Shown: positions 12,217 through 25,251 of the stretch, one piece after another | How the letters are laid out: every line of letters begins with the position of its first letter | Position numbering within the stretch: the stretch's first letter is position 1 | NCBI RefSeq assembly: GCF_001886815.1 | Contig: NZ_CP018099.1 | Coordinates: 3,532,501-3,596,500 of the forward strand | Reading direction: 5' to 3' | Length of the DNA: 64,000 bases | DNA from: Caldithrix abyssi DSM 13497 | GTDB taxonomy: Bacteria > Calditrichota > Calditrichia > Calditrichales > Calditrichaceae | The notes under the pieces: generated by a model | Databases searched by the model: none | Told to the model about the DNA's origin: nothing | The model's input: only the letters and a program-made list of their open reading frames with translations | Program-made: the position numbers and the translations under genes

Positions 12217-13125
12217 TCAAAATTGCCAGCTTAAAGAAAAACGATGCGAATTGCCCAGATCGTAGGGATAAGGACTGAAGGCATAATTTAAACGGTAATT
12301 TTTGTAATTCAAGCCAAAACCGCCGCTGTAGCGCAACGTCTCCCAGTCGAAGACCAGCCCCGAACGTAAATACAGCGTCTTCAACACGGGAACTTCCACG
12401 CCGCCGTTAAAATTAACCTGTTCTTCATAAACCGGATACACGGCGTCAAAAGAGACCAGCATGCGTTTTTCATTCATAATCAGCGGCGTGTGGTACAACA
12501 GGCCGGCGCGCATAATGATCGGCAGTGTGGTGGATTCCACATTTAAAGGCTTCATCCGGCCTAAATTCTGAAGCGTAACGCCCAGGTCGAGATCGGGACG
12601 TAAAAATTGATTTTTAACCAGCCCCACATCAAACGCCCAGCCCGTGGCATCCTCAAGGTAATATTTTTCGTACAGGTATTTAGCCGTCAAACCGACCAGC
12701 CAGCCGTTGTTCAGAGCGCGGGCATAGCTGAAAGAAGCCGCCAGATTAATGGCCTCCGTGGCGCCGGCAGGCTTTTCGGTCGGAACGCTGCCTCTGATTT
12801 CAATCCCCGGAATATTCATTAAATTTAAAGCAACGGCCATCTTGTGTTTGCCGCTGGCAAATTGAAAGGCGGCAAATTCCTGGGCGATATCTGCCAGATA
12901 GGCATTGTGCATTAATACCAGGCTTTTGGATTCGTTTCGGGCCAGAAGCGCCGGATTCCAGTACACGGCGGAGGCGTCGTTAGCCAGCGCCGCGGCCGCT
13001 TCGCCCATGGCCGCCGAACGGGCATCGACCGGCAACTTTAAGAAGGCCATTCCGGCGTCATTGCCGGCAAAAACATTCCACACAAAGCCCAGCGTTAAAA
13101 AAATCGTTAAAATCGTACGAAGCAT
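12217..13125 (-). CDS. PorV/PorQ-family outer-membrane protein (first copy)
   Basis: About 302 residues with a signal peptide (cleavage probably after VFA) and the UPF0164/PorV opening AGMAFLKLPVDARSAAMGEAAAAL followed by YWNPALLA, then a beta-barrel with alternating aromatic strands and a terminal FSLSWQF. PorV-like proteins are FadL-type barrels that work with SprA and the type IX cargo. The start is taken at ATG 13125, 6 bases after an AGGAG that overlaps the preceding stop; the frame's TTG at 13131 is less likely. It is the last gene of the 16052-12217 operon. Which of the two copies is functional PorV cannot be decided here. Confidence 0.85.
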   Translation of the reverse strand: MLRTILTIFLTLGFVWNVFAGNDAGMAFLKLPVDARSAAMGEAAAALANDASAVYWNPALLARNESKSLVLMHNAYLADIAQEFAAFQFASGKHKMAVALNLMNIPGIEIRGSVPTEKPAGATEAINLAASFSYARALNNGWLVGLTAKYLYEKYYLEDATGWAFDVGLVKNQFLRPDLDLGVTLQNLGRMKPLNVESTTLPIIMRAGLLYHTPLIMNEKRMLVSFDAVYPVYEEQVNFNGGVEVPVLKTLYLRSGLVFDWETLRYSGGFGLNYKNYRLNYAFSPYPYDLGNSHRFSLSWQF

Positions 13126-13134
13126 GTTCAACTC

Positions 13135-14070
13135 CTAATTCAAATAAAATTGCCATGAAAAAACATGACTGGCGCCCTCGTCCACCACCGAGGGGACAAA
13201 GGCATAATCGAGCGTTGTAAAAAATTTCCAGAGCTTAAAACCCATTCCCGCGCCAAAGGTTAGCTGATCCTTATTGTAGCCAAAGCGTAATGCCAGAATG
13301 TTGCGATAGGTGGCCTCAAGCCCCAGATGTTGACCGTTTTCGTGTTCCGTTCCCACAAAGGCGTAATTGACGCGCAACCAGGGCAAAGGCGTTAAATACG
13401 TGGCGCCAACGCTCCAGATTTTGGGAAAGGTAAAAACCGTTGTGCCGCCAAATTCAAACAACTTTTCCGTGTTGGCCGTTAATTTAGAGCCCACATCGCG
13501 CAAGCTGGCTGCTACGGTCAGTTTTTGATTGAAGCGGTACGCCGCGCCAAAATCCCAGCCCCAGCCGCTGGCATTGTAACTATCGGCGCCAAAATTCAGA
13601 TCTTCGCGCATGTGCTTGATGGTCAGCCCCACGGCAAATTTGCCGGCAAAAACGCGGGCAAAATTAAAATAGATGGCGTTCAGATTATGATCGATTGTAC
13701 CTGTTTGCTCGCCGATCATGTTGTAGCCCTGAATATCGCCCACGCCGCTGTGGATCCAGCCCAGGCTAAACCCCGCGCCTGGCGGAATTTTACTGGCAAA
13801 GCCGATGAAATCGAAACGGCGATCGAGCGACATAAAACGGTGCGAAAGCGTAAACATCCGTTTTTCGTGAAAGGCGCTCAAAGCCGGATTGTAATAGAAC
13901 GAAAAGGCGTCCACCGGCGCGGCTACCGAACTATTGCCCAGCGCCAGATGCCGGGCGCCCAGCCCCAGCCGCATAAAGGCCCCGGCGTATCCACCGTTAC
14001 TCTCCGCCAGCAACCGATTGCCCTGCAACATCATAAAAACGCTAACTAACAAAATCAAAAATCTTTTCAT
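13135..14070 (-). CDS. PorV/PorQ-family outer-membrane protein (second copy)
   Basis: About 311 residues, paralogous to its neighbour: signal peptide (cleavage near LLA), the PorV opening GAFMRLGLGARHLALGNSSV with FYYNPALSA, a barrel of about a dozen strands and a terminal HVFSWQFYLN. The ATG at 14070 is preferred to the GTG at 14082 because GGATGG lies at a proper distance. It starts about 15 bp after the propeller gene stops and ends 9 bp before the other PorV-like gene. Two related barrels in one operon with a secreted propeller suggest dedicated partners for that cargo, which is inference. Confidence 0.84.
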   Translation of the reverse strand: MKRFLILLVSVFMMLQGNRLLAESNGGYAGAFMRLGLGARHLALGNSSVAAPVDAFSFYYNPALSAFHEKRMFTLSHRFMSLDRRFDFIGFASKIPPGAGFSLGWIHSGVGDIQGYNMIGEQTGTIDHNLNAIYFNFARVFAGKFAVGLTIKHMREDLNFGADSYNASGWGWDFGAAYRFNQKLTVAASLRDVGSKLTANTEKLFEFGGTTVFTFPKIWSVGATYLTPLPWLRVNYAFVGTEHENGQHLGLEATYRNILALRFGYNKDQLTFGAGMGFKLWKFFTTLDYAFVPSVVDEGASHVFSWQFYLN

Positions 14071-14085
14071 TTTTCCATCCACGCG

Positions 14086-15561
14086 TTAATTGACCACAAC
14101 AATTTTACCCCAGGTGACCTGGCCGTTTACCTTTGCTCTAAAGAAATAAACGCCGCTGGCCACTACATCGCCCTTTTGATTTTTACCGTCCCATTTCGGC
14201 TTTAAATTGGATGGCGGAATTTCCGCCACCAGGTCCATGGCAAAATCATAAATACGAATGGGCTCGTCCAGATTTTTGTCGGTATCGTATTCGAACCGTA
14301 CAAAAAAATGACGGCCGGGCGAAAAGGGCACCGGATAGGCGTACACAGCCGGTTTGGCGCGCACCTTCGTCGAAACAAACGAACGGATCACGCGCCAGTC
14401 GGCAAGCGGATCATTCAAACGGCGCACCGCCAGCCCATCGGCATTGCCCAGCCAGGCAAAATGATAATCGTTCCACATTTGCACCGTAACCGAATAATAC
14501 TCCGGTTGAAAAATTTCATTGCCCGATTCAAAATCCTGAATATCGGTAATCACCTCCCATTTATCCTGTTCCGGCAGGTAGTGATACAGGCCCTTATCAG
14601 CCGCGACGAAGACCTGTTGGCCGTAGAAGGCGAAATTGTGGGCAAAAATATCCTCTTCCACCAGTTTACGCTGCCAGGTTTTGCCGCCGTCGTACGTCAC
14701 GCACACCGCGCGGAATTCGCTGGTGTCCTCAGCCTGAATGGTGGCCGCCCACACCGCGTTCGCTTCCGGCTGGTAGGCCAGCGCCACCACAAAATTACCG
14801 GAAATGGAGTGCGGATTGTCTTTTTCAAACACAAAGCGTTCCCAGGTCTGACCGTTGTCGGCCGACTTACTGATGCCCTCGGCCGTTCCCACCCACAGGG
14901 TATCGTTGACGGCCAGCAATGAAAAGGCGCGATGGTTCAGGTTTTGTAAACTGGAAAAAAACTTGCCGTCGGTGGTAACCACCTGCCAGCTTTTGCCCAT
15001 GTCGTCCGAACGCCGCAGCCCCCCGCCAAAGCTGGCAATCCACACCGTGCTGTCGATAAAAGCCAGATCGTAAATTAAATTCTGGATGACGGTGGTGGTG
15101 GGCGCGTAACGATCCTCGTTTATGCTGTCCACCGGCTGCGGCACATGAATCCATGTCTGGCCGCCGTCGCGCGTGTAACTCAATCCGCTGCCGGCGGGCA
15201 AGCTCTCGTCCGAAACGGCCGTTAACGTGTCAAAGGCGGTGGCAATCCAGAATGTGCGATCGTCCATGTAGCCAAACGCGGAAACCCCGCCCTTGCCTTT
15301 GTATTCTTTTTCCGTAAAACTGGTCCAACGCCAGTCATCGCTCTGCAGATCGTACACCGCTTTGCTCAAGCCGTAGCCCGTGGCCACCCACACAACAGAA
15401 TCTTTTGCCGTCAGGTCCACAATGCCGTTGCCGTAAAGCGTTTGAGCAAATGGATGCTCATCCTGCGCCAGATTGAACGACGTTTTGAACATGGCTTGAG
15501 AAAAAAGCTGCGCGCTGAGCAGCAAAAATATCAGGACAAATTGCATGTAAAAACTTTTCAT
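14086..15561 (-). CDS. Secreted BNR/WD-like propeller with T9SS-type C-terminal domain
   Basis: 491 residues: signal peptide ending LFS before Gln, then repeated sialidase-like (BNR/Asp-box) blades such as SADNGQTWERF, SYTRDGGQTWIHV, RSDDMGKSWQVV and TYDGGKTWQRK. From about residue 410 follows a C-terminal domain YAYPVPFSPGRHFFVRFE…NQKGDVVASGVYFFRAKV of the FlgD-Ig/type IX sorting kind. No enzymatic residues of sialidases are identifiable, so it is more likely a surface binding or structural protein than an enzyme. It overlaps the upstream lipoprotein stop by one base and precedes the PorV-like pair, a natural cargo-plus-partner arrangement. Confidence 0.82.
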   Translation of the reverse strand: MKSFYMQFVLIFLLLSAQLFSQAMFKTSFNLAQDEHPFAQTLYGNGIVDLTAKDSVVWVATGYGLSKAVYDLQSDDWRWTSFTEKEYKGKGGVSAFGYMDDRTFWIATAFDTLTAVSDESLPAGSGLSYTRDGGQTWIHVPQPVDSINEDRYAPTTTVIQNLIYDLAFIDSTVWIASFGGGLRRSDDMGKSWQVVTTDGKFFSSLQNLNHRAFSLLAVNDTLWVGTAEGISKSADNGQTWERFVFEKDNPHSISGNFVVALAYQPEANAVWAATIQAEDTSEFRAVCVTYDGGKTWQRKLVEEDIFAHNFAFYGQQVFVAADKGLYHYLPEQDKWEVITDIQDFESGNEIFQPEYYSVTVQMWNDYHFAWLGNADGLAVRRLNDPLADWRVIRSFVSTKVRAKPAVYAYPVPFSPGRHFFVRFEYDTDKNLDEPIRIYDFAMDLVAEIPPSNLKPKWDGKNQKGDVVASGVYFFRAKVNGQVTWGKIVVVN

Positions 15562-16052
15562 TATTGATAAACCTCTATTGAATCTGTAACACTATCGGAC
15601 AAATTGCCGGCTTTATCGCGCATGTAAAAGGTAAAATAATACCTGCCTGTTTGCGCCGAATTATCGATTAAAATGGTTAAAGAATAGATGCCGTCGCCCG
15701 CCGTTTCGTCGCCGGCTTCTTCCCAGGGATTGTTAATATTGAACGGTTTCCCGTTATCCACCATCACTAAAGGCAAACCATTGTTGGCCAGAGAACCGTC
15801 CGGTTTTTTAGAATAAAAATAAACGGAATCCACATCATCCAGTCCATTGGAATCGGCCACAGCCGCAGTAACCAGCGCTTTGTGAAAAAAGCCGGCTGGC
15901 GGCACCTGAATGCTGTCCGGAACCGAAACCCACAAAATTTCGCCGGGCACGTTTTTTTCGTTGTTATCGCCGCCCGTGCCATTGTCATCACACTGCCAGA
16001 TAAACAGGGCGATTATTGAAATGATCATCGCCCATCTCATTCGCTTTACCAT
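15561..16052 (-). CDS. Lipoprotein of unknown function
   Basis: 163 residues starting at ATG 16052 behind a GGAGTAA site. The signal peptide ends with a lipobox-like LFIWQC, so it should be acylated on Cys21. The mature part begins with a Gly/Asn-rich linker and contains an Ig-like beta-sandwich pattern with DSNGLDDVDSVYFYS and GDGIYSLTILID, similar to domains seen in other surface proteins of this group; no catalytic motif is visible. First gene of the operon with the propeller protein and the PorV-like pair, so it probably works at the outer membrane with them. Confidence 0.7.
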   Translation of the reverse strand: MVKRMRWAMIISIIALFIWQCDDNGTGGDNNEKNVPGEILWVSVPDSIQVPPAGFFHKALVTAAVADSNGLDDVDSVYFYSKKPDGSLANNGLPLVMVDNGKPFNINNPWEEAGDETAGDGIYSLTILIDNSAQTGRYYFTFYMRDKAGNLSDSVTDSIEVYQ

Positions 16053-16249
16053 TCGTTACTCCATTTTTTTAGATCGGTCATTTACACAGATGAATCATCA
16101 ATCGATCCATTTTTAAAAAATTACCTGCGGCGGCAACGCATTCATTACCAGTCCGCAATTTTTTTAACCACAACTTTATATTAATAGCTTTTTTGCCATT
16201 GTTGCAATATTTAGCGCGATTTCCTGTCGCCTGCCTGACCGCTCAAATG

Positions 16250-17191
16250 TCAATTATTCAACAATGAAAGCAAATAACCAAATCGCAGGCCGCGCGCAGA
16301 AACATGCAGGCGTTTAATCTGCCCCGCTTCCATCATCGTCACGTAAATAAGCAGCCCGTAAGGCAGTACGTCTTCCCGGCCGGCTTCCAATCCCGGCAGG
16401 CGCAATCGTTCTTTTAAATCCATTGCATTGATGCGCCGGAACCACGCTTTAATTTGTTCCGGTTCCAGCGTGGTTTTACTGATCCGCTGCGCATCGTAAA
16501 CGCGCATGCGGTGCACAATCGCAGCCAGGGTGGTTATGGTGCCGCCCGAACCTACTACAACTCTGGAATCGTCCGTTTCATTCCTTAAAGGATTATTTAC
16601 CAATTCTCGTTCCACTCGTTCTTGCAAACGCCGGTAGTCTTCATCTGTCAGGCGAATTTTAAAATTCATCTCTTCCGCCAGACGCGCCGCGCCCAGCGGA
16701 AAGGAAGCATGCGCTTCTATTTTTCTGCCGCGGCCCAGGGTCGTTTCCGTGCTGCCGCCGCCCACATCGATCACCGTAAATTTTTGTTTCTCAAATCCGT
16801 CAAAAACCGAAATGGCGCCCAGATAAGCGAAACGCGCTTCTTCTTCTGCAGAAAGCACTTTAATGGAAAGCTTCAACGTCTGCCGCGCCCTTTGACTAAA
16901 CGATTCTGCGTTACGCGCTTTACGCAGGGCCTCGGTGGCAATCACTTCCAATGCCGAGCAACCAAAGCGTGCGGCCCGTTCTTTAAAGTCCTTTAAAACC
17001 TGCAGGGCCAATTGCTGCCGCTCTTCGCTTAAAAGGCCGCTCTGTTTTACGCCCTGCCCCAGGCGCGTAATTACAAAATCTTCGTGCAAAACTTCCAGCT
17101 CACCGCCCTTCTGGCGGGCGATTAACAGCAACGCCGAGTGGGAGCCCAGGTCTGCCACGGCAAGCGGTTGGTCAGTTGTCATCGGCCGCAT
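16250..17191 (-). CDS. ppx: Ppx/GppA exopolyphosphatase/pppGpp phosphohydrolase
   Basis: 313 residues of the ASKHA-fold Ppx/GppA family, which removes terminal phosphates from polyphosphate or converts pppGpp to ppGpp. The phosphate-1 motif is VADLGSHSALLLIA, followed by VIATEALRKARNAESF, the second phosphate motif FTVIDVGGGSTETTLG and VVGSGGTITTLAA. This is the short form, consisting of the catalytic core without the C-terminal HD-like domain, so polyphosphate and pppGpp activities cannot be separated by sequence. It overlaps prmA by 20 bp (or 11 bp from the ATG at 17182) and is the last gene of the sprA operon. Confidence 0.85.
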   Translation of the reverse strand: MRPMTTDQPLAVADLGSHSALLLIARQKGGELEVLHEDFVITRLGQGVKQSGLLSEERQQLALQVLKDFKERAARFGCSALEVIATEALRKARNAESFSQRARQTLKLSIKVLSAEEEARFAYLGAISVFDGFEKQKFTVIDVGGGSTETTLGRGRKIEAHASFPLGAARLAEEMNFKIRLTDEDYRRLQERVERELVNNPLRNETDDSRVVVGSGGTITTLAAIVHRMRVYDAQRISKTTLEPEQIKAWFRRINAMDLKERLRLPGLEAGREDVLPYGLLIYVTMMEAGQIKRLHVSARGLRFGYLLSLLNN

Positions 17192-18038
17192 CCTTCTTAA
17201 AAACCAGCGCCAGCCATTCGTTCAGCGTGGCTGCCTCCAGTAATTGCAGGCCGTTTTTTAGATAGGCGTCTTCCACCATCTGCCGATCGCTCTTTAACAG
17301 GCCAGAAAGAATAAGCCAACCGCCTTCAGACAGAGCGCTAACCAGGCCGGAGGCGATCTGCAGCAGAACGTTGCGATTAATATTGGCCACAATGCCGTCG
17401 AAGCGTCCCCTCGGCAGCTGGGCCACATCCCGCACTTCAAACCGCAGCCTGTCTTCAACCTGATTTAAGCGCGCGTTTTCCCACGCATTGTCAATGGCCA
17501 CAGGATCGTTGTCAATGCCCAGAATGTGGCGCCCTCCCAGGCGGGCGGCAAAAATGCTCAAAATGCCGCTGCCCGTTCCGGCGTCCAGCAATCGCGTTTC
17601 AGGCCGAAAATACTTTTCCAGTAGCTTCAGGCACAGGCGCGTGCTTTCGTGATGGCCGGTGCCAAACGCCATTTTGGGCGCAATTTTAAGCAAGATTTCA
17701 CCGGGCCGGGGCGCATATTCCTCCCAGTCTGGCGCAACCACAATCCGCTGACCAATTTTGAACGGCTTAAAGCTCTGTTTCCATTTTTCCAGCCAGTTCT
17801 GTTCGTCGTGCGTTTCCACCGCCAGGCGCGTCTCATCAAAGTCCGGAATGACCTCCGAAAACAGTCCGAGTAGTAACCAGTACACATCCTGATTCCAGTC
17901 CTGCCAATCGTAATAAACGATAAAGTCGTTTTCCTGCTCCTGAATGCCCTGAGCGCCCGTGGCAAAAATCGGCCCGGAAAGGCTTTCCAGAAAAAAAGGC
18001 GCCGCCAACACCTTAACCGAAACCCACTTATTGCTCAT
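17172..18038 (-). CDS. prmA: Ribosomal protein L11 methyltransferase
   Basis: 288 residues from ATG 18038 (MSNKWVSVKV), the start used because the upstream in-frame extension is not PrmA-like and would lie inside the neighbouring peptidase gene. It is a SAM-dependent methyltransferase that trimethylates ribosomal protein L11. Seen: the substrate-binding N-terminal domain, AFGTGHHESTRLCLKLLE, the SAM-binding LLDAGTGSGILSIFAA, LGIDNDPVAIDNAWEN and the IVANINRNVLLQIA motif. It overlaps both neighbours (11 bp upstream, up to 20 bp downstream), so the operon is tightly coupled. Confidence 0.92.
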   Translation of the reverse strand: MSNKWVSVKVLAAPFFLESLSGPIFATGAQGIQEQENDFIVYYDWQDWNQDVYWLLLGLFSEVIPDFDETRLAVETHDEQNWLEKWKQSFKPFKIGQRIVVAPDWEEYAPRPGEILLKIAPKMAFGTGHHESTRLCLKLLEKYFRPETRLLDAGTGSGILSIFAARLGGRHILGIDNDPVAIDNAWENARLNQVEDRLRFEVRDVAQLPRGRFDGIVANINRNVLLQIASGLVSALSEGGWLILSGLLKSDRQMVEDAYLKNGLQLLEAATLNEWLALVFKKDAADDN

Positions 18039-18915
18039 AAATAACTTCCAGTAAAACACGTCCGATGATACCCAGGCTCTGCGGACTGCATTTGTCTGGC
18101 GTGTCCTCCAGCGTATGCCAGTAAGGATAATCGAAATCAATAATATTAATGCAGGGGATGCCCGCCTCCAGCAAGGGCACATGGTCGTCGTCCACATAGC
18201 CCAGAAATTGATCCGAAAACTCGTAATAGCCCATATTTTGCGCCGTTTTCCAGACGCGATCAACCAGCCAGGGCAAATATTTCACCGAATACCCTTCGCG
18301 TTTAAGGTTCAATTGCGCATCGCCGATCATGTCGATTAAAATGCCGAATTCATGCGAAAAATTCAAGCGGTGATAATGCTTGGCAAAATAGCGGGAGCCT
18401 AAAAAGTACTCCTCCAGATGTCCCTGCCGGCCGTAGTCTTCGCCGTCGAACAAAACAAGATCGACGCCAATATTGGTTGGCGGTTGCATTTGCAAAACAC
18501 GAGCGATTTCCAGCAAAACAGCCACGCCGCTGGCTCCGTCGTTAGCCCCCGGAATGGGCGTATTTTTATTCTCTTCCGTATCCATATCAGCCCTGGGGCG
18601 CGTATCCCAGTGAGCGGCCAGAAAAATCCGTCTTTCATTTTGCGGCTGAAAACGGGCGATGACATTGGTCAGTTTGAGCGTTTTTTTGTGATAGGCGTCG
18701 TACCATTCAAAGGGTTGCAAAATGACCGTATCGGCAAATTGCTTAAACTCCTGATGTAAAAATTCCAGACACTTTTGATGTCCCTCGCTATTGGGATTGC
18801 GCGGCCCAAACGCCACCTGTTTTACCAGATACTGAAACGCCCGTTGATCGTTAAACTGTGCCACAAGCGTCGTATGCAAGGCAAACAAAACAAAAAAGAA
18901 AAGGACTCTCTTCAT
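18028..18915 (-). CDS. M28-family glutaminyl-peptide cyclotransferase-like protein
   Basis: 295 residues, signal peptide cleaved probably after LVA with Gln at +1. The zinc-site residues of the M28/glutaminyl-cyclase fold are visible: AAHWDTRPRAD, GANDGASGVAVLLEI, DGEDYGRQG, ILIDMIGD and PYWHTLEDT. The overall arrangement (KYLPWLVDRVWKTA, IPCINIIDFDYPYWHT) is that of bacterial and animal glutaminyl cyclases, which close an N-terminal Gln into pyroglutamate, rather than of aminopeptidases. It lies 9 bp after sprA and overlaps prmA. Position in the sprA operon suggests it processes exported proteins. Aminopeptidase activity remains possible. Confidence 0.8.
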   Translation of the reverse strand: MKRVLFFFVLFALHTTLVAQFNDQRAFQYLVKQVAFGPRNPNSEGHQKCLEFLHQEFKQFADTVILQPFEWYDAYHKKTLKLTNVIARFQPQNERRIFLAAHWDTRPRADMDTEENKNTPIPGANDGASGVAVLLEIARVLQMQPPTNIGVDLVLFDGEDYGRQGHLEEYFLGSRYFAKHYHRLNFSHEFGILIDMIGDAQLNLKREGYSVKYLPWLVDRVWKTAQNMGYYEFSDQFLGYVDDDHVPLLEAGIPCINIIDFDYPYWHTLEDTPDKCSPQSLGIIGRVLLEVIYEQ

Positions 18916-18924
18916 CGTTCTCCT

Positions 18925-21900
18925 TTAATCTCTGATGGCAATATTGACGGTAATACCAAACTCATTGTAAGAGTATTTACCGGAAATTTTATTTTTGGAA
19001 ACGCCCGTTTCGTAGAACAGACTTCCCTGAACGCGCGAGCTAAACCGATAGGTGGCCGCGGGACGCAGTTTCCAGTTGCTGTTGCTCTGTTTTTCGATAA
19101 ACTTATCTTCGCCAAATTGCCGCTGAAATGTTTTACTGGAAGAAGCGTCAAAAGTCAAATTAAAATTGATCTCGTTTTTAAACTTTTTGTTGTTAAACGG
19201 CCATATCGGAAGACGAAAGCCCTGTGTCCGCGAATAGCTGAACGACAGGTTAAAATTGGTCTGCGCCGATTTGGTTGCGCCGCCGCTGGTGGAATACGAA
19301 TAGTTGGTGGTGCTTGTGTAACGAATGGTGCCGGTGACTCCCCATTTAGTGGAAATATTAACGCCCACTAACGGCTGCCAGGCATTGGTAAAGGTTTGCG
19401 TGGTGGGCAACAATCCGCCGCCCAATTTCAGCGTCAGGTTTTCCGTGTACTTACTGTTATGCGCATGGGTGATGCTGATGGAGCGCGCAAATTTGGGGAA
19501 GAAGAACATCTTTTCCAGGCCGCTGATTTGCACGTTCCAATCGGGAATGAAGGCGTTAATGCTGGCCAGTCCGCGGAAATTAGCCTTGGGATCATCGCCT
19601 AAAAAGAAGTAAGAAGTCGTTTTGCTGCCCGAACCCGCCTTACCATAATCCGAACGGCTTTCCTGAGAACGCATATCGTGTTTTAATGAGGCTCTGACAT
19701 TATTCAAAATTTTAAAACTGGTTGAAGTGCGAATGGACAGGGTTTTGCTTTCCACCGGCCCAACCAGGTTCACATTTAAAGTCGAATCCTGCGGAATGCC
19801 CGGACTTCTGGTAAAGCCAAACTGGTATTCCCAGCTCGGCATGTCCGCCAGATAGCGGTGCTGAACGCGTTCGTCCTGCGAAATACTGGTTCGGATATTG
19901 CTCCAGCTGGCAATGGTATTGTACACCCACATCAGAGGATTGGGGAAGGAGAAGGTTTTCTTTTTCTCCTCCTTTTTCTCCGTTTGCTTCTGATCCTGTT
20001 GTTTGGGTCTTCTGATAGAACGCCGGCGACGGCTGCCGCTTCTTTGAGCCGGTTGTTTTTTTCGGGGATTGTAAATCGTTTTGATGAACTCTCCCGGATT
20101 AAAGGTTAAATCCAGCCGCTTGTTAATGGAATTGGATGCGTTTTTGTACTCGTTGGGCATGATTAATTGATAATTAAAATTGCTGCTAAAGCTAAAACTG
20201 GGTTTCAACCATTTGAACAGGGTGGGTTTGTAATTTCCCTGAAATTGCTGACGAATGTTGGTGTCCAGCCCAAAATCGCCCTTAGAAAATATTCTGTTTA
20301 TCAATTTTTTGTGCGTGTATCCTTTCACGTCCGCATCGGAAGTGTAATTTCTCGAAAAGCTAAAATCAAGGCTATTCAGCATTTTGTACCCCAGCCGAAA
20401 GGAGCGCGTCGTATTGATATTTTTTGTAACGCTAAGCTTGGGGTTGCTGCGCCGCAGTAGTTCTTTTTTATTGTCAGTAATGCTCACGTTAAAACTGAGC
20501 TGCGAGGGCATGTAATAGAATTTTTGCGAACTGAGTCTCTTTAATAGCGGCACTTTTTTCAGAAATTTAAACGGCTCTATGCCCTTATTGCGTCCCAGAG
20601 GCGCGGAATAGACAAACGATTCTTTAAACAATTCCGATCGGTTAAAGGCGGTTTCCCAGTTGCTGCTCTTTTTCTTTGAATAGTCCACGTCAAAGGTGAT
20701 GCCGTCGAGCGTGTAGCGCAGCAGCCAGAATTTAGACTTGGAACGTTTTTTAATGGTGGTTCCGATTCCGTACACTTCGCTTTTGGTGGTAATGGTTTCC
20801 ATCTCCTCGGGCAGTTTTCGTAACCCAAAGAGCGACTTCAACTTTTTGGTGAAGGTGTCGTTCTGATAATGGGTAAGTTGATCCGTATTGGTTACGTATT
20901 TGGGGATGCTGCGGCTAAACGAAGCCCGGGCGTCAATGGGAATGGACAGATCCAGAAAATCCGGCAAAAATTTGTGCAAAAAGAGTTTGGCCGAATAGTT
21001 TTGTCGTTCGTCGGTATTGCCGCTGCCGAATTGTTTGCTGACATTGTGGAAATCGGCGTCTTTGCTTTCCCACTGAGCGTTAAAGTTAAAAACGTCGGCA
21101 AACTTCATGCTGGTTAAAAGACGCATGGCCGTGGCCTTTACCTTTCGCACATCCGAAAGACGCATTTCGTCTAACCAGATCTCGCCGACAAACGGTTCAT
21201 TGCTGCGTCCGGGTTCATCGCCGCGGTGTTTAACGCCGATAATAAAATAGCGGATGGTGTTTAAGCTGGGCTTGCCCACCGCCTTGTAATAGGCCTCCAC
21301 GCGGCCCGGCAACTTACGAAGATAGACCAGACTGTCGACCGTACCGACGTTATAAGCTTCGTCAGACTTAATGGCGGCCAGCTCGTCCAGATCGATTTCT
21401 ATGTTATTGTCCGGATGCCAGTGGGCGTACACATCCTGTCCGTATTCATAATAATTCTTATCATCCGAGCCAAAGCGCAAATAAAAGCGAATGGGCGACG
21501 GATCAGAAAGTGGGATGCCCTCTTGATTGTATTCCGGCGGATCGGCGGGCAACATGCGGTCGCCGTGCACAAACATTTTTAATTTTTTGTAATCGACCAG
21601 GCTCATTCTTTGATAGAGCTGTTTACGCGCTTCGGCAATTTCTCCCGGTTGCAGGCCAAAGAAGCGCATTACCAGGGACTGTTCCTTGGAAAGGGCGCGC
21701 GTAATGCGGTCGCGCACGCCGGTAACGCCGGGCGGCGAATGGTAAGGTTCCGGCCCGCCGGGAATCTCTTCCACGTTCTCTTCGGTGTTGTAAACGGCCA
21801 GCGAAAAGAGCGAGTCATTGAGAACAAAGTCAGATTTTTCGTCGCGCGCAATGCCGGTTTCTTCCCACTCATTGCCCACAAAATCAAAGGTGGCGATTAA

Positions 21901-24900
21901 AATACGCGTACGTTCTTCTTCCGGAATATCGCTAAACCACAAACGCACGTTGAGGATTTGCTGGAATGTGGTGTCCGGATTATTGACCGCCCGCGTGTAA
22001 TCTTTGATAGGAATTCTGAACTGTCGCCAGCCTTTTTCGGTGGAGCCGACCAGCCATTTTTGCGAATTTTCGTCGCTGCCGTCCAGAGAAAAGCTGTATT
22101 CAAAATAGGAATTAACGGTAGAAACGTCGCCGTCGCCGTCCAGGTCTTCGGTATCCGGGTAGCGTGCTTCCCGCGCCTGACTGTTGCCTTCCGTTCCGTT
22201 AATGCCGTCGTACAGCACGCCGTCGTAACGGTTCCAGGCGTTTAACTGCACTTCATGCCAGTCGTCGTTGGGATCGTCTCCCGGTTGCCCGTTGGGGATG
22301 CCGTCCAGGCCCACGTCTTCATCTTCTTCCAAAAGGCCGTTGGTGTTTTTATCTTCGGTGTTCAGGTTGCCGTAACTATCTTCGCCGCGCCAGTTTTTAC
22401 CGCGGATGTACCAGTCTTCCGAAATTTGACCGATATCGATGTGCACGGTGCCCTGGTTTCCTAATATCCACAGTTCGATGTATTTGGTTTTTTCCTGGTT
22501 GGCAAAAGAGGCCGTGGAACGCATGATTCCGGCCCAGGCGCTGTCCGGATCGCTGCCTTTTTCGCGCCAGATATCAATGCCCAGCACGTTGGTGGTCTGT
22601 CCTGTTTGCGCATTCACGTCGCGGTTAGGCCAGATGTCTTTAATAGGCACCTGCCGATAGGGATTAAACCACACGATGTGGGCGCGCGCCCGGTCGCGGG
22701 CAAAAATTTCCGATCTCCGCTCCTGAGGACCAAGCGCTTCGATGGGCGTTTCGTTTAAAGTAGGAATAACCGAAGGCACGCTGGCCATGGTCCAGGTGCG
22801 GTAGCGGATGCCCAGGGTGGTGGTGCGTTTGCTGGCTTCAAAATCGTCGATATAGGCCACGCCGTTGTCGTCGCCCGTACCTTTGTTATTTAATGTGTTC
22901 GGATTGGGCAACACCTGGGCGAATTCGCCTTCGACCTTTATTCTGGATTCGGCGTTCGTTTCAACAATGGGCAACTTATCAAGCAGCCGCGTAATAATTC
23001 TCGGCTTAAAATCAAACGAAGCATTGATATCCCACACGAAATTGCGGAAGGGTTCCTGCCCCACGCGCACACGCTGATCCAGCGTGCTTTTATTCATGTA
23101 AAGCGCCGTAAAGCCAATGAACGATTTTTCCCAGAAGCGATATTCCAGCCGCGTTCCGAAGATGGTTTTTTTATCCAGCTGGAACAAATTGGCCCGTTCA
23201 TATTTAATCTCAATATTTGAGCTGCTGCGCTTGGCCTCTGGAGAGAGCAGCGTTAACTGCCCCGTAAAATAATCGATAATGTAATCTTTATCGCGCGTAA
23301 GGGTGCGCCCGCCCAGGGTAACCACTTCGCTGCCTTCTAAAACATAAAATCCCAGATCAAAGGTTGATTTGGTGCTTTTGGAAGTTACGATAATTTCAAA
23401 TTTACTGCGCTTAACAAATTCCGAGCTGTTGGAATTGTTCAATCTGTACATATCGACCAGGTCTTTTTCCGGCAGTCGGCCGGCAAAACGGCTACCCGGT
23501 TCTGGATTGAAAGGCTGCAAAGAGGGGAAAATTAAAATACCGTTTTTAAAGTCGATGATGTACGGGTTGTAGTCAACCTTTTCATCGCCCCCTTCCACGC
23601 GATTGCCGTTTTCATCCAGTAAATCAAGCTCCAGTAAATTCAGGTAGGTTCTGTCACTGCCTTCGGGATAAATCTGGTGCGTGCCGTTTACGTTGTTTTC
23701 GATGCGCAGCTCAAAACCGCTCTTTTCGATGTTGGTGCCGCCCAAAAAGTACACATTGCGCATCATCAGCGGCCAGGTCTCTTCGTAAGAGGGCTGAATT
23801 TGACGCGGCTTAATCATTTTCAAAATCACCGCCTGGCTGGTATCCTGCAGGGTCTCGCTCATGGTGCCCACGGTGGGCACATTGGGATCGCTGAAAGCAT
23901 TGGCCGTGGCATAGGCCACCGCTAAAATCTGGTTATTTTCAACGCCCTGGTTCAACCAGAAAAAACCGCGATATTTATCGTAATAAAAATCTTTGCCCTC
24001 TATTAGCTGTCTAAAATAGCCGGTTTGCTTGGTGCGTTCATCGGTGGCCACGGTATCCAGATCGATGTTCTGATATTTCAGATCGGCATCCAGGTAGGCC
24101 CAGGGATCAATGGTTGCCACGCCGCGCCGCACGCCATCATCGGCATAGCTGGTAGAAACCCATACCTCCAATTGCAGAACTTCCGTACCCGCCACAAAAG
24201 AGAAGGTTTGCGGATCGTCTTTCAATCCGTCTTCGAAGTGATCCCGATAAAAATTATCAATAAAAAAGTAACGATTTTTAATAAACTCGTAATCGCGAAT
24301 GGTGGTACTGGATTCTTTAGCGCTGCCGCTAATGGTCAATTCCTGTTGCTGTCCTTTTTCCAGCGAAGCAATGGTGGTCATGTACAGGTTGCCCACCTGT
24401 ATTTTAGACTTCAACCCAAACAAGCCTTTATTTGAACCGCCAAAAATAACGTATTTGGTTGCCGGCAGACTTAAGGAGATGTTTCCCGCTTCAATGCTTT
24501 GCACAATTTCATCTTCGTCGCCGTCATAGCGCAATTTGAGCGTATTTTCGATATCTACCGTCGCCTCGCTGTTTTGTTCAACGGAAACGGTTACTTTTTC
24601 GCCGATTTTACCTTCCACCGTAAATTGCTGCGTCTGTTTAAAACGCGGGCTAAAGGTGTTCTGGTTTTCCAGCGCAGAAATAGCCGAACCGGAACGTTTT
24701 TCGCTGCGCCCGGAAAGGTCGAAAGAGATATTACCGGTTACTTTGAGCCCGATGCGATCCGATCCGAAGATGCGCGTAAAGGTTTTACTTTTGATGTGCA
24801 AAGGAATATCTAATTTGATGGCGCCAAAACCGCTTTCCGTTTGTTGCCCAAATTTGTAAGTGAGCGCTTGACGCCACAATTTTTGCGTGTCATATTTCAA

Positions 24901-25251
24901 ACGCAATTTAATGTAAGTTTCCAGGTCAACCACGGCAGGCAAAAAGATATCGGTGCCGTCTATAGCTTCGCGAAAGGCGACAAAACGCGCGGTGGAATCC
25001 ATCGTAACCTGCCGCCGCAAAACCCTTGGCTTTTTTACAAATAAGGTGGAATCGTATTTTAACCGGGCAAGTCCCTCCACGCTCGGTTCAAACAAACGGA
25101 CGGATTTGGGCGGTGGAGGAATTCGTATTCCAATTTGAGAAAATACCCCGATCGGAAGAGATAGAGCAAAGAATAAAAAAATCAACCGCTTCCAATGGAG
25201 AAGATTGGTTCCTAAACCTGATTGTGCTTTCAAACTTTTTTCAATACCCAT
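18925..25251 (-). CDS. sprA: Type IX secretion outer-membrane translocon SprA/Sov
   Basis: 2108 residues, the giant single-chain outer-membrane channel of type IX secretion. The N-terminus has a signal sequence ending VFS before Gln (RLIFLFFALSLPIGVFSQ). SprA hallmarks include the repeated DLSGRSEKRSG and VEGKIGEKVTVSVEQN region, DEDEIVQSIEAGNISLSLP, GGSNKGLFGLKSKIQVG, GIDIWREKGSDP and PFVGEIWLDEMRLSDVRK. The very long C-terminal barrel carries many NFNLSFSYSRT-like strands. A strongly basic, Lys/Glu-rich linker (near DNA 19960-20060) interrupts the barrel, which is unusual-looking. Length is in the SprA range. The M28, prmA and ppx genes follow within overlapping distance. No clear ribosome site precedes ATG 25251, so the start is uncertain. 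Confidence 0.93.
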   Translation of the reverse strand: MGIEKSLKAQSGLGTNLLHWKRLIFLFFALSLPIGVFSQIGIRIPPPPKSVRLFEPSVEGLARLKYDSTLFVKKPRVLRRQVTMDSTARFVAFREAIDGTDIFLPAVVDLETYIKLRLKYDTQKLWRQALTYKFGQQTESGFGAIKLDIPLHIKSKTFTRIFGSDRIGLKVTGNISFDLSGRSEKRSGSAISALENQNTFSPRFKQTQQFTVEGKIGEKVTVSVEQNSEATVDIENTLKLRYDGDEDEIVQSIEAGNISLSLPATKYVIFGGSNKGLFGLKSKIQVGNLYMTTIASLEKGQQQELTISGSAKESSTTIRDYEFIKNRYFFIDNFYRDHFEDGLKDDPQTFSFVAGTEVLQLEVWVSTSYADDGVRRGVATIDPWAYLDADLKYQNIDLDTVATDERTKQTGYFRQLIEGKDFYYDKYRGFFWLNQGVENNQILAVAYATANAFSDPNVPTVGTMSETLQDTSQAVILKMIKPRQIQPSYEETWPLMMRNVYFLGGTNIEKSGFELRIENNVNGTHQIYPEGSDRTYLNLLELDLLDENGNRVEGGDEKVDYNPYIIDFKNGILIFPSLQPFNPEPGSRFAGRLPEKDLVDMYRLNNSNSSEFVKRSKFEIIVTSKSTKSTFDLGFYVLEGSEVVTLGGRTLTRDKDYIIDYFTGQLTLLSPEAKRSSSNIEIKYERANLFQLDKKTIFGTRLEYRFWEKSFIGFTALYMNKSTLDQRVRVGQEPFRNFVWDINASFDFKPRIITRLLDKLPIVETNAESRIKVEGEFAQVLPNPNTLNNKGTGDDNGVAYIDDFEASKRTTTLGIRYRTWTMASVPSVIPTLNETPIEALGPQERRSEIFARDRARAHIVWFNPYRQVPIKDIWPNRDVNAQTGQTTNVLGIDIWREKGSDPDSAWAGIMRSTASFANQEKTKYIELWILGNQGTVHIDIGQISEDWYIRGKNWRGEDSYGNLNTEDKNTNGLLEEDEDVGLDGIPNGQPGDDPNDDWHEVQLNAWNRYDGVLYDGINGTEGNSQAREARYPDTEDLDGDGDVSTVNSYFEYSFSLDGSDENSQKWLVGSTEKGWRQFRIPIKDYTRAVNNPDTTFQQILNVRLWFSDIPEEERTRILIATFDFVGNEWEETGIARDEKSDFVLNDSLFSLAVYNTEENVEEIPGGPEPYHSPPGVTGVRDRITRALSKEQSLVMRFFGLQPGEIAEARKQLYQRMSLVDYKKLKMFVHGDRMLPADPPEYNQEGIPLSDPSPIRFYLRFGSDDKNYYEYGQDVYAHWHPDNNIEIDLDELAAIKSDEAYNVGTVDSLVYLRKLPGRVEAYYKAVGKPSLNTIRYFIIGVKHRGDEPGRSNEPFVGEIWLDEMRLSDVRKVKATAMRLLTSMKFADVFNFNAQWESKDADFHNVSKQFGSGNTDERQNYSAKLFLHKFLPDFLDLSIPIDARASFSRSIPKYVTNTDQLTHYQNDTFTKKLKSLFGLRKLPEEMETITTKSEVYGIGTTIKKRSKSKFWLLRYTLDGITFDVDYSKKKSSNWETAFNRSELFKESFVYSAPLGRNKGIEPFKFLKKVPLLKRLSSQKFYYMPSQLSFNVSITDNKKELLRRSNPKLSVTKNINTTRSFRLGYKMLNSLDFSFSRNYTSDADVKGYTHKKLINRIFSKGDFGLDTNIRQQFQGNYKPTLFKWLKPSFSFSSNFNYQLIMPNEYKNASNSINKRLDLTFNPGEFIKTIYNPRKKQPAQRSGSRRRRSIRRPKQQDQKQTEKKEEKKKTFSFPNPLMWVYNTIASWSNIRTSISQDERVQHRYLADMPSWEYQFGFTRSPGIPQDSTLNVNLVGPVESKTLSIRTSTSFKILNNVRASLKHDMRSQESRSDYGKAGSGSKTTSYFFLGDDPKANFRGLASINAFIPDWNVQISGLEKMFFFPKFARSISITHAHNSKYTENLTLKLGGGLLPTTQTFTNAWQPLVGVNISTKWGVTGTIRYTSTTNYSYSTSGGATKSAQTNFNLSFSYSRTQGFRLPIWPFNNKKFKNEINFNLTFDASSSKTFQRQFGEDKFIEKQSNSNWKLRPAATYRFSSRVQGSLFYETGVSKNKISGKYSYNEFGITVNIAIRD

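What the first reader, a model, noticed from the sequence alone, without database searches (positions are those of the whole stretch)
18028..25251. Glutaminyl-cyclase-like gene next to sprA, with Gln at +1 of many signal peptides
The M28 glutaminyl-cyclase-like gene lies 9 bp after sprA. In this window predicted cleavage sites are followed by Gln in SprA (VFS/Q), the cyclase-like protein itself (LVA/Q), the propeller cargo (LFS/Q), the nuclease-barrel protein (GFC/Q) and the restored split gene (GFA/Q). The PorV-like pair (VFA/G and LLA/E) are exceptions. A preference for Gln after signal peptidase I sites, with pyroglutamate formation, is known from Bacteroidota (the Q-rule). Finding it with a cyclase inside the sprA operon of a probable Calditrichota member would extend the rule and tie it genetically to type IX secretion.
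Basis: partly seen in the sequence, partly recalled or inferred. Interest (0 to 1): 0.72.

Follow-up and report, generated by a model that had tools for sequence, protein, structure and literature searches.

The report
Q-rule and glutaminyl cyclase in Calditrichota
This deep-branching bacterium marks the start of about half its exported proteins with glutamine and carries, right behind its type IX secretion gene sprA, the enzyme that would cap that glutamine; yet relatives that lack the enzyme keep the glutamine, so the two are not as tightly tied as assumed.

Summary
The gene at 18028-18915(-) lies 9 bp behind sprA and encodes a type II glutaminyl cyclase (QC): its AF2 model fits Bacteroidota QC crystal structures (Z 43-44, 1.3-1.6 A), and it has the QC (Asp-Gly, Trp-His), not the aminopeptidase (Asp-Asn), active-site signature. 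A site model that starts without preference at +1 finds Gln there in 31 of 60 predicted signal-peptidase-I substrates of this genome sample, against 11/18 in Prevotella and 3/35 in E. coli. So the "Bacteroidetes-only" Q-rule holds in Calditrichota, and in sampled Marinimicrobia and KSB1 loci. sprA-QC adjacency recurs in several other phyla. But the proposed functional tie fails: Calditrichota genomes with neither QC type, in which sprA runs straight into prmA, keep the same Gln rate (40/78); Zixibacteria have sprA-QC without Gln excess (1/15, small sample); and Gln also marks the non-T9SS chaperone Skp. Most likely the QC caps Sec-exported proteins in general and its place behind sprA is an old operon arrangement. 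What maintains Gln in QC-less relatives (an unknown cyclase, spontaneous cyclisation, or signal-peptidase preference) is open. No pyroglutamate was measured.

The parts
18925..25251 (-). sprA (Sov), T9SS outer-membrane translocon, 2108 aa, signal peptide ...GVFS/QIGI
   Evidence: TIGR04189 E 6.6e-273; PF14349
18028..18915 (-). type II glutaminyl cyclase, 295 aa, signal peptide ...TLVA/QFND; Zn ligands D126, D160, H267; catalytic E159, D195; QC marks G127, W266
18916..18924 (-). 9-bp sprA-QC gap containing the ribosome-binding site AAGGAG
   Evidence: sequence
17172..18038 (-). prmA (L11 methyltransferase); ATG overlaps the end of the QC gene by 11 nt
   Evidence: PF06325 E 1.4e-68, sequence
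16250..17191 (-). Ppx/GppA phosphatase, overlaps prmA by 20 nt
   Evidence: PF02541
15561..16052 (-). 163-aa protein of unknown family, conserved in the operon
   Evidence: no family hit; synteny
14086..15561 (-). BNR propeller protein with PorZ-like C-terminal end, signal peptide QLFS/QAMF
   Evidence: PF02012, NF052228 on residues 404-490; site by reading
13135..14082 (-). PorV/PorQ-family outer-membrane protein, +1 Glu (exception)
   Evidence: NF033709 E 2.4e-29
12217..13131 (-). PorV/PorQ-family outer-membrane protein, +1 Gly (exception)
   Evidence: NF033709 E 8.7e-43
   Evidence: translation

Best explanation
The gene encodes a periplasmic zinc glutaminyl cyclase of type II. Signal peptidase I exposes Gln at the N-terminus of about half or more of the Sec-exported proteins of this Calditrichota member (shown at sequence level), and the QC would convert that Gln to pyroglutamate as soon as it appears (inferred from the family), which would shield the proteins from aminopeptidases (inferred from P. 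gingivalis, PMC10653852). The QC serves exported proteins in general, not T9SS cargo alone. Its seat between sprA and prmA is an old operon arrangement shared by several FCB-related phyla, through which its expression is probably coupled to an outer-membrane/secretion cluster (sprA-qc-prmA-ppx-...-propeller-porV-porV). The QC is not what maintains the Gln in the lineage: relatives lack it and keep the rule.
For: QC identity: best PDB sequence hits are Bacteroidota QCs (6qro E 2.9e-66); AF2 model pLDDT 94.6, VIA Z 43-44 and rmsd 1.3-1.6 A to B. thetaiotaomicron, T. forsythia and P. gingivalis QCs, Z about 33 to animal QCs, 31.8 to LapB aminopeptidase; Asp-Gly and Trp-His marks conserved in 21 orthologues bar one Asp-Ala (criteria) while M28 paralogues of this genome have Asp-Asn. 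Q-rule: with E. coli and Prevotella controls; SprA +1 Gln in nearly all readable Calditrichota; Skp/OmpH +1 Gln in every readable genome. Linkage. Decoupling: QC absent by single sequence, profile and signature in G005, G006, G011, G013, G014, type I QC absent or only weak hits in long non-QC frames, sprA followed directly by prmA, Gln rate 40/78.
Against: No enzyme assay or N-terminal mass spectrometry. PgTrp193, which lines the pocket of Bacteroidota QCs, aligns with Tyr here and PgPhe294 has no clear counterpart. The signal-peptide predictor is home-made and covers about 9% of the genome. The protective role is carried over from Porphyromonas.
Confidence: 0.78

Rival explanations
1. The QC is dedicated to type IX secretion: it caps T9SS components or cargo, hence its place behind sprA, and the Q-rule is a T9SS-linked signal.
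For: sprA-QC adjacency in 31 of 80 QC loci over several phyla, label strongly clustered on the QC tree (10 changes vs 35 in shuffles); none of the 11 Poribacteria loci (QC present) shows it.
Against: Gln also marks Skp/OmpH; P. gingivalis has T9SS but its QC lies with PG2158 and hemG (PMC10653852); QC-less relatives keep sprA, dozens to over 100 CTD-type cargo hits and the same Gln rate; replacing the Gln does not stop T9SS export of RgpB and Kgp in P. gingivalis (PMC5837995).
Confidence: 0.12
2. The gene is an M28 aminopeptidase and the Gln excess is a property of signal peptidase I alone.
For: The M28 fold is shared with aminopeptidases (PF04389); Gln persists in QC-less genomes; 3tc8/4fuu were first annotated as aminopeptidases.
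Against: Asp-Gly instead of Asp-Asn/Asp after the zinc Asp, Trp before the zinc His, Asp as third zinc ligand; nearest solved relatives include inhibitor complexes of QCs.
Confidence: 0.06
3. The Gln excess is an artefact of the predictor or of Gln-rich composition.
For: Home-made predictor; only part of each genome sampled.
Against: The peak is at exactly +1; the same code gives 9% in E. coli, 6-7% in Poribacteria and Zixibacteria, 61% in Prevotella; orthologue-level conservation in Skp and SprA.
Confidence: 0.03

Closest known systems
Bacteroidetes Q-rule (Bochtler et al. 2018, PMC5837995; Szczesniak et al. 2023, PMC10653852)
   Same: Gln right after the signal-peptidase-I site in a majority of exported proteins regardless of destination; a periplasmic QC present.
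   Different: Another phylum (the 2023 paper says exclusively Bacteroidetes; the 2018 paper already lists Ignavibacterium album 77% and Chloroherpeton 55%); the QC sits behind sprA; several relatives have no recognisable type I or II QC yet keep Gln; cyclisation not shown.
Bacteroidota type II QCs (PgQC 6qql, TfQC 6qro, BtQC 7d1d/7d1e; PMC7948796)
   Same: Fold, zinc ligands D/D/H with the bacterial Asp as third ligand, catalytic Glu and Asp, Asp-Gly mark, Trp-His mark, Arg-Pro...Asp access loop.
   Different: About 40% identity; PgTrp193 is Tyr here; no insertion before Trp; Sec signal instead of lipoprotein anchor (relatives of family f2 look like lipoproteins, f5 has a transmembrane anchor).
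Fimbriiglobus and Acidobacteriales QCs (7d1b, 7d18)
   Same: Type II QC outside Bacteroidota, solved.
   Different: More distant (32-36% identity); link to sprA not examined.

Membership tests
type II glutaminyl cyclase | M28 alpha/beta fold closest to known QCs | tested here: met
   AF2 + VIA Z 43-44 to QCs, 31.8 to LapB
type II glutaminyl cyclase | single-zinc ligands Asp, Glu/Asp, His | tested here: met
   D126, D160, H267 invariant in 21 orthologues, criteria
type II glutaminyl cyclase | residue after zinc Asp is not Asn/Asp (loss of second zinc site) | tested here: met
   G127; paralogues have Asn
type II glutaminyl cyclase | catalytic Glu (HsE201) and Asp (HsD248), Trp before zinc His (HsW329) | tested here: met
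   E159, D195, W266
type II glutaminyl cyclase | PgPhe294/HsPhe325 counterpart | tested here: inconclusive
   loop before Trp is shorter; aromatic residues F261, Y263, Y265 nearby
type II glutaminyl cyclase | cyclises N-terminal Gln | not testable with these tools
   needs assay
Bacteroidota (bacteroidal) QC subgroup | PgTrp193 pocket Trp | tested here: not met
   Tyr at the aligned place; so not filed in that subgroup
Q-rule | Gln at +1 in about half or more of SPI substrates | tested here: met
   31/60 here, 11/18 in Prevotella, 3/35 in E. coli with the same method
Q-rule | not limited to one destination | tested here: met
   Skp/OmpH, SprA, QC, propeller cargo
Q-rule | Gln converted to pyroglutamate | not testable with these tools
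   no proteomics
Q-rule | a candidate type I or II QC in the genome | tested here: met
   met in this genome; not met in relatives G005, G013, G014 and others that show the same Gln rate
T9SS | SprA translocon, PorV family, CTD cargo | tested here: met
   TIGR04189, NF033709, PF18962 with 107 scored matches in G000
T9SS | GldL/GldM motor | tested here: inconclusive
   PF12081 and TIGR03513 give nothing in G000, but no control rang above cut-off either

The most novel reading that the evidence does not exclude
Several Calditrichota lineages lack the sprA-linked QC yet keep the Q-rule over long evolutionary times, so either a third, unknown kind of glutaminyl cyclase works in their periplasm, or Gln at +1 is under selection for a reason other than enzymatic cyclisation (signal-peptidase preference or spontaneous cyclisation). 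Either would change the present model in which the QC is the essential partner of the rule.
Probability: 0.5. Interest if true: 0.75.

Novelty: new variant of a known kind. Interest (0 to 1): 0.62.

Why it matters
The Q-rule is described as exclusive to Bacteroidota, and its QC as essential and a drug target in P. gingivalis. Showing the rule in another phylum at Bacteroidota strength, with the QC gene fixed behind sprA over several phyla, suggests that the rule is older than Bacteroidota. Natural absences of the QC from the same operon that leave the rule intact give a ready test of what the Gln is for, and point to an undiscovered cyclase or a QC-independent cause.

Tried and rejected
First predictor pass took fixed cleavage scores and under-counted Gln by misplacing sites (e.g. 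/GEVFAQ, /WAQ); replaced by an EM site model that starts with no preference at +1. Idea that QC-less genomes lose the Gln: tested and wrong. Idea that the QC was only missed or moved in those genomes: profile search and active-site signature found only Asp-Asn aminopeptidases among the hits whose motif could be read. Idea that a type I QC replaces it: true for G022, G032, G037 and present as well in the f5 family, not for the f1 genomes without QC. Idea that QC loss follows heat (faster spontaneous cyclisation): IVYWREL estimates do not separate the groups, inconclusive. Remnant of a QC gene behind sprA in G005: the stretch is an intact prmA frame. GldL/GldM searches gave nothing but their controls did not ring above cut-off either.

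Full report
What is there. On the minus strand sprA (18925-25251) is followed after 9 bp by a 295-aa gene (18028-18915). The 9-bp gap carries AAGGAG, and the prmA start codon overlaps the end of this gene by 11 nt, so sprA-qc-prmA-ppx read as one operon, running on with a 163-aa protein, a BNR propeller with a PorZ-like C-terminus, and two PorV/PorQ-family proteins. SprA is certain (TIGR04189 E 6.6e-273). The window lies in a complete 4.98-Mb single-contig genome; its closest named relatives are Calditrichota MAGs (tree) and its size fits Caldithrix abyssi (about 5 Mb, PMC5317091), which I take as probable but did not prove.

The cyclase. The best sequence matches in the PDB are Bacteroidota QCs (6qro 2.9e-66). 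The AF2 model (pLDDT 94.6) fits BtQC, TfQC and PgQC with Z 43-44 at 1.3-1.6 A over 275-279 residues, animal QCs at Z about 33, and an M28 aminopeptidase (LapB) at Z 31.8. Criteria separating QC from dizinc aminopeptidases are given in PMC7948796: Gly rather than Asn/Asp after the zinc Asp, Trp before the zinc His, Asp as the bacterial third ligand, and an Arg-Pro...Asp access loop. All hold (D126-G127, E159-D160, D195, W266-H267, R106-P107...D110), and the M28 paralogues of the same genome show Asp-Asn instead. PgTrp193 is Tyr here and PgPhe294 has no clear counterpart, so it is a type II QC but not one of the Bacteroidota subgroup. Activity is not shown.

The Gln rule. I wrote a signal-peptide scorer that uses n-region charge, h-region hydrophobicity and the -3/-1 residues but not +1, and then an EM step that learns the +1 letter from no preference, with random-letter nulls. 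Gln at +1: this genome (464 kb sampled) 31/60; five QC-less relatives together 40/78; other QC-bearing f1 genomes 24/54; family f2 17/28; families f4-f6 30/68; Marinimicrobia 19/35; KSB1 9/19; Prevotella (positive control) 11/18; E. coli (negative control) 3/35 with Ala the commonest; Zixibacteria 1/15; Poribacteria 1/18. Null values had means of 4-10% and a maximum of 31% (Poribacteria set), 12% for this genome. This genome against E. coli gives p 1.6e-5. Fixed-site versions at the two usable thresholds gave 44-53% here and 12-16% in E. coli, the Gln peak being at +1; the strictest threshold left too few proteins to use. At orthologue level, Skp/OmpH has Gln at +1 in the Calditrichota genomes in which the site could be read and SprA in nearly all (reading obvious misplacements by eye). 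So the rule holds across the phylum. The published claim is 'exclusively in the Bacteroidetes' (PMC10653852), although PMC5837995 already lists high values for Ignavibacterium album and Chloroherpeton.

Linkage with sprA. SprA is found in 37 of 40 phylum genomes. From hit positions I count 20 genomes with QC next to sprA on the same contig; a few more are split by contig ends; family f5 has its QC elsewhere, with a transmembrane anchor and from a separate clade of the QC tree. Among 80 QC loci from named genomes, 31 have sprA directly upstream: all 8 Marinimicrobia and all 6 Zixibacteria with enough upstream DNA, 6 of 8 Calditrichota, 3 of 5 KSB1, one each of Latescibacterota, Gemmatimonadota and TA06, and a few with doubtful labels; none of 11 Poribacteria, 4 Ignavibacteria, 2 Fibrobacteres or the two Bacteroidales-type loci. 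The label is strongly clustered on the QC tree. I found no paper in the held library that reports this pairing or a T9SS in Calditrichota.

Decoupling. G005, G006, G011, G013 and G014 (73-97% complete) have no QC by single-sequence search, profile search or active-site signature, no true type I QC, and their sprA runs directly into prmA. They are not one clade on a quick SprA tree (G014 is sister to QC-bearing G004, support 96; the careful search did not finish), so several losses are likely. Their Gln rate equals that of QC-bearing relatives (p 0.69). With SprA branch lengths of roughly 0.3-0.6 changes per site, a useless +1 Gln should have eroded (inference). In the opposite direction, Zixibacteria and Poribacteria loci have a QC without Gln excess, on small samples from QC neighbourhoods. 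QC type also swaps: G022, G032 and G037 have only the type I enzyme.

Reading. The most likely working is general capping of Sec-exported proteins by this QC, as in Bacteroidota, with an old operon link to sprA that is not a condition of the rule. In QC-less relatives an unknown cyclase, spontaneous cyclisation or a signal-peptidase preference must be invoked; I cannot choose among them.

Limits. No SignalP, no proteomics, partial genomes, small samples outside Calditrichota, and mostly MAGs.

Noticed in passing
G000 whole genome; window 12217-25251: T9SS-like set with SprA, two PorV-family proteins and 107 scored Por_Secre_tail matches, but no GldL (TIGR03513) or GldM (PF12081) match; the C. 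abyssi genome paper also found no Bacteroidetes gliding machinery. Possibly a T9SS with another or a diverged motor; controls for the two families did not ring above cut-off.
   Followed up: partly
window 15561-16052: The 163-aa operon protein has homologues of about 370-410 aa in most relatives; here and in G013 and G010 it is short, possibly truncated or restarted.
   Followed up: no
   Followed up: no
L056-L060 (G029-G034, family f5): QC in a large-genome family is not by sprA, carries a Lys/Arg-rich N-terminus with one transmembrane helix, falls in a separate QC clade, and coexists with type I QC.
   Followed up: partly
L219, L255, L257, L260 (Zixibacteria): sprA-QC pair present but predicted signal-peptidase sites are followed mostly by Ala/Gly, not Gln (1/15).
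   Followed up: partly
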